Origin: Flavobacteriales bacterium
Lineage (GTDB): Bacteria; Bacteroidota; Bacteroidia; Flavobacteriales_F; PHOS-HE28
Assembly: GCA_023382455.1 (NCBI GenBank)
Contig: JAHDVX010000002.1
Location: forward strand, 1-64,000
Direction: 5' to 3'
DNA length: 64,000 bases
Below are positions 25,403 through 28,645 of the stretch, in pieces (position 1 is the first letter of the stretch; each line of letters begins with the position of its first letter). The notes under the pieces were generated by a model. The model was not told the origin of the DNA and did not search any database. It worked only from the letters and a program-made list of their open reading frames with translations. The translations under genes and the position numbers were made by a program.

Positions 25403-26614
25403 ATGCGGCACACGATCGCCACCGTTCTCTTGACCTCCCTGCTGTTCCACGTTGGGGCCCAGGCCCAGACCGAGGCGCTCTGGCTTCGCTACGGGGCCAT
25501 TTCACCGGACGGTTCCACCATTGCCTTCAGCTATCAGGGCGACCTGTGGCGCGTTCCCGCCACCGGCGGGGCCGCCACACTGCTCACCACCAACGCCGCC
25601 TACGAGCACTCACCCGTATGGTCGCACGACGGCCAATGGATCGCCTTCGCCAGTGACCGCCATGGCAATGACGATGTGTACGTGATGCCTTCCGGCGGTG
25701 GAACGGCGCAGCGCCTCACCTGGTCCAGCGCAGACGATGTGCCCTCGGATTTCTCCCCGGACAACGCCGCTGTCCTTTTCAGCAGTTCCCGGATGCATTC
25801 GAAGGCGGACAGGCAATTCCCTGGCCGCGGATTTGGTGAGGTCTACCGTGTGCCTGCGCGGGGAGGGAAAGCCTTGCAGGTGATCTCCACCGCAGCGGTC
25901 GGCGCCCGCTACAGTCCCGATGGCCAAAGCCTCGTGTACCAGGACAAGAAGGGCTTCGAGAACCATTTCCGCAAGCACCACACCTCTTCCGTCACGCGGG
26001 ACATTTGGACCTACGACCTCGGCAGCAAGGCGTATAAGCAGATCAGCACTTTCGCGGGCGAGGACCTCAACCCCGTGTTCAGCCCTGACGGCGGCCAGGT
26101 GTACTACCTGAGCGAGGAGAAGGGCAGCATGAACATTTTCCGCAGGTCCGTAGGCGGCGGGAACGCCGAGCAGGTCACCTTCCTGGAAAAGGACCCCGTG
26201 CGCTACCTCAGCATGGCCCGCACCGGCACGCTCTGCTTCAGCTATCGTGGCGGGCTGTACACCATGGCACCCGGCGCGCAACCCGTGCGCTTGGTGGTGA
26301 CCACCGCAGTGGACAGCCGCTACACGCCGGAGAAGACGATCACCGTGAACGGGGACGCCTCGGAGGTGAGCCCCTCGCCCAACGGCGTGGAGGTGGCCTT
26401 CATCCATCGCGGGGAGGTCTTCGTCACTTCCGTGAAGGAAGGCACCACGCGGCGCATCACCAACACGCCGGAACAGGAGCGCTCGGTGAGCTTCAGCCCC
26501 GACGGAAGAAGCCTGCTGTACGCCACGGAGCGCAACAACAGCTGGGACCTCTACCGCACCATCCTCACGCGGCCGGAGGAAAAATACTTCTTCAATGCCA
26601 CGGTGCTGAAGTAA
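25403..26614 (+). CDS. Tricorn-like S41 protease, N-terminal part (interrupted by in-frame TAA)
   Basis: 403 aa, with signal peptide MRHTIATVLLTSLLFHVGAQAQ, then a WD40/TolB-like six-to-seven-blade propeller (SPDGSTIAFSYQGDLW, SHDGQWIAFASDRHGNDDVYVM, SPDGQSLVYQD, SPDGGQVYYLSEEKGSMNIF). The frame ends at TAA 26612-26614, but the codons immediately after it (GAG GCG CTG GTG GCC) stay in the same frame and continue the propeller. Tricorn-type proteases are single chains of about 1,050-1,100 residues, so a single nonsense codon probably splits one gene. The protein is normally periplasmic and degrades peptides. As read, this half lacks the catalytic domain. Confidence 0.85.
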   Translation: MRHTIATVLLTSLLFHVGAQAQTEALWLRYGAISPDGSTIAFSYQGDLWRVPATGGAATLLTTNAAYEHSPVWSHDGQWIAFASDRHGNDDVYVMPSGGGTAQRLTWSSADDVPSDFSPDNAAVLFSSSRMHSKADRQFPGRGFGEVYRVPARGGKALQVISTAAVGARYSPDGQSLVYQDKKGFENHFRKHHTSSVTRDIWTYDLGSKAYKQISTFAGEDLNPVFSPDGGQVYYLSEEKGSMNIFRRSVGGGNAEQVTFLEKDPVRYLSMARTGTLCFSYRGGLYTMAPGAQPVRLVVTTAVDSRYTPEKTITVNGDASEVSPSPNGVEVAFIHRGEVFVTSVKEGTTRRITNTPEQERSVSFSPDGRSLLYATERNNSWDLYRTILTRPEEKYFFNATVLK

Positions 26615-26623
26615 GAGGCGCTG

Positions 26624-28645
26624 GTGGCCACGCCGGCCGAGGAATTCCAAGCGGCATGGTCGCCGGACGGCAAAGAAGTGGCCTACCTGGAGGAACGCAC
26701 CGCCGTGAAGGTGTACAACCTCGCCAGCAAGCAAAGCCGCACGGTGCTCCCGGCGGACAAGAACTATAGCTATGCGGACGGCGACCAATACTTCTCCTGG
26801 TCACCGGACAGCAAATGGCTGCTGGTGGAATTCCTGCAGGACAAGCAATGGATCACCCAATGCGGGCTGGTGAAGGCAGACGGCAACTCCCCGGTGATCA
26901 ACCTCACCAAGAGCGGCTACGGCGGCGGCCATCCGCGGTGGGCACTGGACGGCAAGGCCATGCTGTGGTTCAGCGGCCGCGACGGCATGAAGGCCCAGAG
27001 CAGCTGGGGCAGCCAGATGGACGCCTATGCCATGTTCTTCACCCAGGCCGCCATGGACACGTTCCGGTTGAGTAAGGAGGAATATGACCTGCTGAAGAAT
27101 GATGCGGGCGGGGACATGGGTGGGGAGGACAAGGGAGGAAAGGATGGTAAAGGAGATAAGGGAGGAAAGGATGAGAAGGAGGATAGCACGGTGGCGCCGT
27201 TGAAGTTCGAGCTGGACGGTATCGAGGACCGCAAGGTGCGGCTCACCATCCATTCCAGCGACCTGGCCGATGCCATCATGAGCAAGGACGGTGAAAAGCT
27301 TTACTACCTGGCGGAATTCGAGAAGGGTTTCGACCTCTGGCAGACCGACCTGCGCTCCAAGGAGACCAAACTGCTGGTGAAGATGGGTGCCGAAGGCCCC
27401 GGCAGCATGGAGATGGACAAGGAAGGCAAGAATCTCTTCCTGGTGAACAATGGCGGCATCTCCATGGTAGACCTGGACAAGGGCGAGGTGAAATCCGTGG
27501 GCATCAAGGGCGAGATGCGCCTGGATGCCGCGGCAGAGCGCCAATACCTCTTCGAGCATGTGTGGCGGCAGGTACTGAAGAAATTCTACGTGAAGGACCT
27601 GCAAGCCACCGATTGGGACTACTACAAGAAGGAGTACGCCCAATACCTTCCCTACATCAACAATGACCAGGACTTCGCCGACCTCTTGAGCGAGATGCTC
27701 GGAGAACTGAACGCCTCGCATACCGGGGCCTATTACCGCGGTTCCATCCCGAACGGCGACGCCACCGCACGGCTCGGCCTCTTCTACACCAACGACACGC
27801 TGCCGGGCCTCACCATTTCGGAGGTGATCGACCGCTCGCCGGTGATCAAGGCCGGTTCCAGGGTGAAGGCCGGCACGGTGATCGAACAGATCGACGGCGA
27901 GGCGATCACCGGCCGCGATGAACCCGCACGCTTCCTCAACCGCAAGGCCGGCCGCAACGTGCTGCTCTCGCTGTACGACCCCATGACGGGCAAACGCTGG
28001 GAGGAGACCGTGAAACCGATCACCCGCAGCGAGGAGAACGAGCTTTTGTACCGCCGTTGGGTGGAACGCAACCGCCACACGGTGGACAGCCTCAGCAACG
28101 GCCGCGTGGGCTATGTGCACGTGCGCGGCATGAACAACGACAGCTACAAGACCGTGTACGAAGAGGTACTGGGCCGCTACCACGACAAGGAAGCCCTCGT
28201 GGTGGACACACGCTTCAACGGCGGCGGCTGGCTGCACGACGACCTGGCCACCTTCCTCAGCGGCCATGTGTACATGCACCTGATGCCCCGCGGGCAGGAC
28301 CTCGGTACCGAACCCCAGTTCAAGTGGAGCAAGCCCAGCGTGGTGCTGATGAACGAGGCCAACTATTCGGATGCGCACATGTTCCCGTTCACGTACAAGG
28401 CCTTGGGTATCGGCAAGCTCGTGGGCATGCCCGTGCCGGGAACCGGCACCGCTGTGTGGTGGGAGCACCTGCAGAACGGCGTGATCTTCGGCATCCCGCA
28501 AGTGGGCATGGTGGACAACAGCGGCAAGTACTTGGAGAACCAACAGCTGGAACCCGACGTGCGCCAAGCCGATGAACCCGCCCTGCTCAGCACCGGCACG
28601 GACCAGCAACTGGGCGCGGCAGTGAAGGCGGTGTTGGGCCAGTAA
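26624..28645 (+). CDS. Tricorn-like S41 protease, C-terminal part with PDZ and catalytic domain
   Basis: 673 aa if started at GTG 26624; in frame with, and separated only by TAA from, the preceding part. Contents: second propeller (SPDGKEVAYLEERT, SPDSKWLLVEF), a low-complexity Gly/Lys/Asp insert (about 160-185, repeated GGKD/GDKGG), a helical bundle, a PDZ domain (about 385-465), and the S41 core with VVDTRFNGGGWLHDDLATFLSG and the nucleophile region NEANYSDAHMFPFTYKALGIGKLVGM (catalytic Ser). Without the first half it lacks a signal peptide, so alone it would stay in the cytoplasm. Confidence 0.85.
   Translation: MATPAEEFQAAWSPDGKEVAYLEERTAVKVYNLASKQSRTVLPADKNYSYADGDQYFSWSPDSKWLLVEFLQDKQWITQCGLVKADGNSPVINLTKSGYGGGHPRWALDGKAMLWFSGRDGMKAQSSWGSQMDAYAMFFTQAAMDTFRLSKEEYDLLKNDAGGDMGGEDKGGKDGKGDKGGKDEKEDSTVAPLKFELDGIEDRKVRLTIHSSDLADAIMSKDGEKLYYLAEFEKGFDLWQTDLRSKETKLLVKMGAEGPGSMEMDKEGKNLFLVNNGGISMVDLDKGEVKSVGIKGEMRLDAAAERQYLFEHVWRQVLKKFYVKDLQATDWDYYKKEYAQYLPYINNDQDFADLLSEMLGELNASHTGAYYRGSIPNGDATARLGLFYTNDTLPGLTISEVIDRSPVIKAGSRVKAGTVIEQIDGEAITGRDEPARFLNRKAGRNVLLSLYDPMTGKRWEETVKPITRSEENELLYRRWVERNRHTVDSLSNGRVGYVHVRGMNNDSYKTVYEEVLGRYHDKEALVVDTRFNGGGWLHDDLATFLSGHVYMHLMPRGQDLGTEPQFKWSKPSVVLMNEANYSDAHMFPFTYKALGIGKLVGMPVPGTGTAVWWEHLQNGVIFGIPQVGMVDNSGKYLENQQLEPDVRQADEPALLSTGTDQQLGAAVKAVLGQ

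What the first reader, a model, noticed from the sequence alone, without database searches (positions are those of the whole stretch)
26600..26640. Single in-frame TAA splits a tricorn-like S41 protease
The reading frame before and after 26612-26614 is the same and both sides are intact propeller sequence; neither half alone makes a complete exported enzyme. A one-base change (for example GAA to TAA) or a sequencing error would explain it. If real, it is a very recent pseudogene or a case of readthrough.
Basis: seen in the sequence. Interest (0 to 1): 0.55.

Follow-up and report, generated by a model that had tools for sequence, protein, structure and literature searches.

The report
Recent nonsense break in tricorn-like protease
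In this bacterium's assembled genome a large exported protease gene is interrupted by one stop codon that no examined relative shares, most likely a very recent broken copy or, less likely, a one-letter assembly error; it is an ordinary find.

Summary
A TAA at 26612-26614 lies in frame between 25403 and 28645 and splits a tricorn-like S41 protease into 403 and 676 codons. The stop is private to this genome. The column is Glu in 50 of 51 relative loci (the other is N; three loci are duplicates). In a class-wide search the other 108 listed matches, in 85 genomes, have no internal stop. So the gene is not normally split, and this is not a conserved readthrough site. Constraint is strong on both sides, without excess amino-acid change on this branch, so the stop must be very young. 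No tRNA able to read TAA is among the 39 found, an incomplete set. Best reading: a very recent nonsense substitution in the only copy. The rival, a consensus error, needs reads to exclude. Readthrough or restart at GTG 26624 is possible but unsupported. In passing, divergence from the nearest relative changes sharply at about 26375, a probable recombination junction upstream of the stop.

The parts
25403..26614 (+). 5' part of the split gene: signal-peptide-like N-terminus, first beta-propeller and start of the second (403 aa), ending in the private TAA
   Evidence: place of the break in the fold read (intact orthologue)
26612..26614 (+). in-frame TAA, at a column that is Glu in 50 of 51 relative loci (the other is N)
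26615..28645 (+). 3' part in the same frame: rest of second propeller, Tricorn_C1, PDZ, S41 catalytic domain (676 aa plus stop)
26624..26626 (+). first possible restart codon (GTG) after the stop; restart not shown
27716..27721 (+). Ser-His pair of the S41/tricorn active site, kept downstream of the stop
   Evidence: catalytic role recalled
28367..28369 (+). putative nucleophile Ser (NYSD), kept
   Evidence: catalytic role recalled
28535..28537 (+). putative active-site Glu (YLEN), kept
   Evidence: catalytic role recalled

Best explanation
A very recent nonsense substitution turned a conserved Glu codon of a single-copy, exported tricorn-like S41 protease gene into TAA. Translation should end after 403 residues, at the edge of a blade in the second beta-propeller, giving an exported fragment without the protease domain. 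The remaining 676 codons, with the active-site residues intact, would be left without their start signal and signal peptide. The gene is therefore most likely a nascent pseudogene, or a nonsense allele within the population. Shown: stop, frame, private state, kept active-site residues, constraint. Inferred: that the base is real, that the product is exported, and that function is lost.
For: Single in-frame TAA with colinear homology on both sides. The column is Glu (27 GAG, 23 GAA) in 50 of 51 loci, the 51st being N. None of the 108 other class matches has a stop inside. One match in the own genome. dN/dS against the nearest relative 0.198 (5' part) and 0.162 (3' part). Nonsynonymous to synonymous changes on this branch 77:115 against 68:80 on the sister branch, Fisher p 0.32; a rough model puts the neutral share of the branch below about 5%. 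In about 40 kb of comparable window frames this is the only stop deep inside a frame backed by high-scoring full-length relatives, 18 other positions being set aside by position.
Against: No reads and no second strain, so an error cannot be excluded; absence of decay is equally what an error would show. The nearest relative has GAG here, so a one-step origin assumes the synonymous GAA in the immediate ancestor.
Confidence: 0.63

Rival explanations
1. A consensus error in the assembly: the organism has an intact gene and the stop is a wrong base call or a minority variant picked by the assembler.
For: The stop is seen in one assembly only; there is no sign of decay; relatives are intact at the site. 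The six nearest named loci by table order (L036-L041) are titled MAG, so the window's unnamed 51-contig genome may be one as well (inference).
Against: A substitution, not the indel typical of poor long-read consensus (recalled). No other deep in-frame stop was established in about 40 kb of comparable frames of the window. The genome is rated 99.95% complete with 0.08% contamination.
Confidence: 0.3
2. The stop is tolerated: readthrough, or restart at GTG 26624 behind the purine-rich AAGAGG, yields some full-length protein or a separate second half.
For: Constraint is kept on both sides. A GTG follows, with nine bases between it and the stop. Belinky et al. 2021 (PMC7918605; abstract, matched passages and section 2.1 seen) argue that in-frame stops in bacterial genes keep dN/dS below 1 and may be read through.
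Against: The stop is in 0 of 50 readable relative loci. No tRNA with anticodon TTA among 39. RNA folding around the stop is unremarkable (z -1.52). A restarted half would lack a signal peptide and the first propeller. TAA is generally the least leaky stop (recalled), and Bacteroidota make little use of Shine-Dalgarno signals (recalled).
Confidence: 0.06
3. Two genuine adjacent genes, the family being naturally encoded as two proteins.
For: None found.
Against: The frame is open through the column in 50 of 51 loci (L031 is broken there by a run of N; L012 has its first 49 residues in another frame, far from this site) and no stop lies inside the 108 other matches, a few of which are partial (for example G183 and G294).
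Confidence: 0.01

Closest known systems
Tricorn protease of Thermoplasma (PDB 1k32), peptidase family S41
   Same: Propeller repeats, Tricorn_C1, PDZ and S41 domains in order; the intact nearest orthologue is predicted with TM-score 0.77/0.81 to 1k32; Ser-His, Ser and Glu positions align
   Different: 18% identity in the structural alignment; signal-peptide-like N-terminus; this copy has a TAA at residue 404. The source organism of 1k32 is recalled
Uninterrupted tricorn-like genes of Bacteroidia, nearest in 'MAG: Flavobacteriales bacterium isolate mag.6' (JAGFIV010000097, L036)
   Same: Colinear, 87% protein identity
   Different: No internal stop; Glu at the column
In-frame stops in bacterial genes (Belinky et al. 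2021, PMC7918605)
   Same: Single nonsense codon inside a constrained gene
   Different: Those authors focused on stops shared by two or more species; this one is private

Membership tests
Tricorn-like S41 protease | PD40 propeller, Tricorn_C1, PDZ_Tricorn and Peptidase_S41 domains in order | tested here: met
   All four over their Pfam cut-offs, divided between the two halves
Tricorn-like S41 protease | Active-site Ser-His, Ser, Glu | tested here: met
   Residues 772, 773, 989, 1045 (read-through numbering) match invariant columns and align with 1k32; catalytic role recalled
Tricorn-like S41 protease | Tricorn fold | tested here: met
   Tested on the intact nearest orthologue, not on the broken protein: pLDDT 82.5, best match 1k32
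Tricorn-like S41 protease | Protease activity and assembly | not testable with these tools
   needs protein
Pseudogene / nonsense allele | Disruption absent from orthologues | tested here: met
Pseudogene / nonsense allele | Relaxed selection on the disrupted lineage | tested here: not met
   77:115 against 68:80, p 0.32; hence only a very recent event is possible
Pseudogene / nonsense allele | Base confirmed by reads or by other strains | not testable with these tools
   no reads held; the genome collections searched hold one genome per species
Functional stop readthrough or recoding | Stop conserved among relatives | tested here: not met
   0 of 50 readable loci, 0 of 108 other matches
Functional stop readthrough or recoding | tRNA able to read TAA | tested here: not met
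   39 tRNAs, none with anticodon TTA; the set is incomplete, with no Asp or Ile tRNA in it
Functional stop readthrough or recoding | Stimulatory RNA structure | tested here: not met
   z -1.52; 16 of 200 shuffles fold at least as well

The most novel reading that the evidence does not exclude
The TAA is a real, tolerated switch: a low level of readthrough or restart at GTG 26624 gives a reduced dose of full-length protease or a separate cytoplasmic second half.
Probability: 0.05. Interest if true: 0.45.

Novelty: new member of a known kind. Interest (0 to 1): 0.12.

Why it matters
It matters little beyond annotation: the locus should be marked as interrupted, and this protease activity should not be assumed for the strain. 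As a private stop in a gene constrained on both sides it is a fair test item for telling nascent pseudogenes from consensus errors in assembled genomes.

Tried and rejected
Naturally split gene: rejected. Stop reassignment or suppressor: no TTA anticodon among 39 tRNAs, and this same gene ends in TAA at 28643. Second copy in the genome: none at E 0.001 with the 3' part. Decay in the 3' part: none seen. Readthrough structure: not significant.

Led nowhere: the first comparison of relatives without strand correction gave many wrong rows (replaced). The first window scan was swamped by antisense shadow frames; the filtered scan kept 59 of 246 aligned pieces and listed 19 stop positions. I set aside 18 of these by position (outside the gene's start or end, or in a frame other than the long open one there, using the ORF lists); they were not each proven. 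No frame-break candidate passed that filter. My stretches were cut near or inside the tricorn gene, so three intact orthologues were added. An exact 21-base search of viral contigs found nothing. Literature: 'tricorn protease' with 'stop codon' found no paper in the held library; two searches gave listings of no direct use; led to PMC7918605.

Full report
Observation. The frame that opens at ATG 25403 meets TAA at 26612-26614 and continues in the same frame from 26615 to TAA 28643-28645. The first part (403 aa) holds PD40 propeller repeats; the second (676 aa) begins with another PD40 stretch and goes on to Tricorn_C1, PDZ_Tricorn and Peptidase_S41; these four models are over their Pfam cut-offs. 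Read with X at the stop, the protein matches tricorn protease 1k32 in two pieces, residues 37-349 and 683-1078.

Relatives. A search with the 3' part among 58 genomes, the own one included, found matches in 36; 32 of the 34 other genomes of the same genus have one, G014 only a partial one, and G002 and G033 none. The genome-contig scan gave 22 named loci; the nearest is titled 'MAG: Flavobacteriales bacterium isolate mag.6' (L036) and is the same gene as L007. Of 51 loci aligned with both strands searched, 50 show Glu at the stop column (27 GAG, 23 GAA) and one, L031, has N there. One relative, L012, has its first 49 residues in another frame, a separate break far from this site, not followed up. 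A class-wide search of 395 genomes with the read-through protein listed 109 matches in 86 genomes, the own one included; at most two candidates per genome were scored. The own gene is the only one with a stop inside. A few of those matches are partial. At this site the gene is thus one continuous frame wherever else it could be read.

Age of the stop. Against L036, dN/dS is 0.198 for the 5' part (384 codons; the first 25 alignment columns from the start codon and gapped codons left out) and 0.162 for the 3' part (676 codons), like pairs of intact relatives in the same table (0.15 to 0.25). Changes assigned by parsimony, sites where the outgroup majority matched neither being dropped: window branch 57 synonymous and 46 nonsynonymous in the 5' part, 58 and 31 in the 3' part; sister branch 48 and 41, 32 and 27. 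The sums do not differ (Fisher p 0.32), and a rough model with an assumed neutral ratio of 2.8 gives a 95% upper bound near 5% for the neutral share of the branch. A nonsense change older than a small part of that branch should have left a trace. This fits a very recent change, and fits an error equally.

Where it breaks the protein. The nearest intact orthologue, folded with 33 relatives, gives pLDDT 82.5 and pTM 0.82, and its best solved match is tricorn 1k32 (E 5.9e-54, TM 0.77 and 0.81). The Glu at the stop column is residue 405 there and lies at the start of strand 404-409, in the second propeller region (assignment to the second propeller is my reading of the strand list). The fragment before the stop would keep the signal-peptide-like start and the first propeller; the Ser-His, Ser and Glu active-site positions lie after it (catalytic roles recalled).

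Readthrough. The genome has 39 tRNA matches, and none of the ARAGORN anticodons at those 39 places is TTA; no Asp or Ile tRNA is among them, so the draft's set is incomplete. Folding of 120 bases around the stop gives z -1.52. A GTG at 26624 follows the stop behind a purine-rich stretch; restart there is possible but would yield a protein without signal peptide. Belinky et al. 2021 (PMC7918605; I saw the abstract, matched passages and section 2.1) report that in-frame stops in bacterial genes are widespread, with dN/dS below 1, that many may be read through, that a substantial fraction of initial cases may be artefacts, and that such stops tend to persist only for short times on the scale of population polymorphism. 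The present stop fits the short-lived class.

Error or real. Comparison of 380 kb of stretches from seven relatives, plus three intact orthologues, with the window assigned 40,330 bases to frames; the only stop deep in a frame backed by high-scoring full-length relatives is 26612, the other 18 positions listed being set aside by position and not each proven. The assembly is rated 99.95% complete with 0.08% contamination in 51 contigs. These favour a real change modestly, as does the general expectation that nonsense alleles outnumber substitution errors in good assemblies (recalled). Reads are needed.

Mosaic history. From 25480 on, divergence of the window gene from L036 changes sharply at about 26375: 23.0% differing bases to the left, 8.3% to the right (max chi-square 110.8). 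The largest of 100 permutations is 14.9, but real control pairs exceed that too: six pairs, three of them including the window gene, reach 7.2 to 32.7, so the contrast to rely on is 110.8 against 32.7. Identity to the same genome elsewhere in the window is 78-85% in the long pieces, and 73% just upstream of the gene. One of the two lineages has therefore probably exchanged part of this gene. The junction lies about 240 bases before the TAA; no causal link is shown.

Verdict. The feature is there in the sequence as given, and its reading as a recent single-base interruption holds. It is an ordinary nonsense allele or nascent pseudogene, or a consensus error; nothing argues for a new mechanism.

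Noticed in passing
window 26375 (about), against L036: Sharp change in divergence from the nearest relative inside the gene, 23.0% to 8.3% differing bases: probable recombination junction about 240 bases upstream of the stop.
   Followed up: partly
window 26612-26620: Four of nine bases at and just after the stop differ from the nearest relative, in a stretch otherwise about 93% identical.
   Followed up: no
window 25841-25843 (residue 147): Besides the stop, the only column where the window departs from a residue shared by at least 97% of relatives: Val against Leu in 50 of 50.
   Followed up: no
L012: The first 49 residues of this relative's orthologue match in another frame than the rest: a separate frame break near its 5' end.
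   Followed up: no
genomes G002 and G033: Two of 34 other genomes of the genus lack a match to the 3' part; one is rated 73% complete, the other 94%.
   Followed up: no
class-wide matches: 23 of the 86 genomes with a match list two matches; in 20 of these the weaker one is 26-31% identical, a more distant tricorn-like gene.
   Followed up: no
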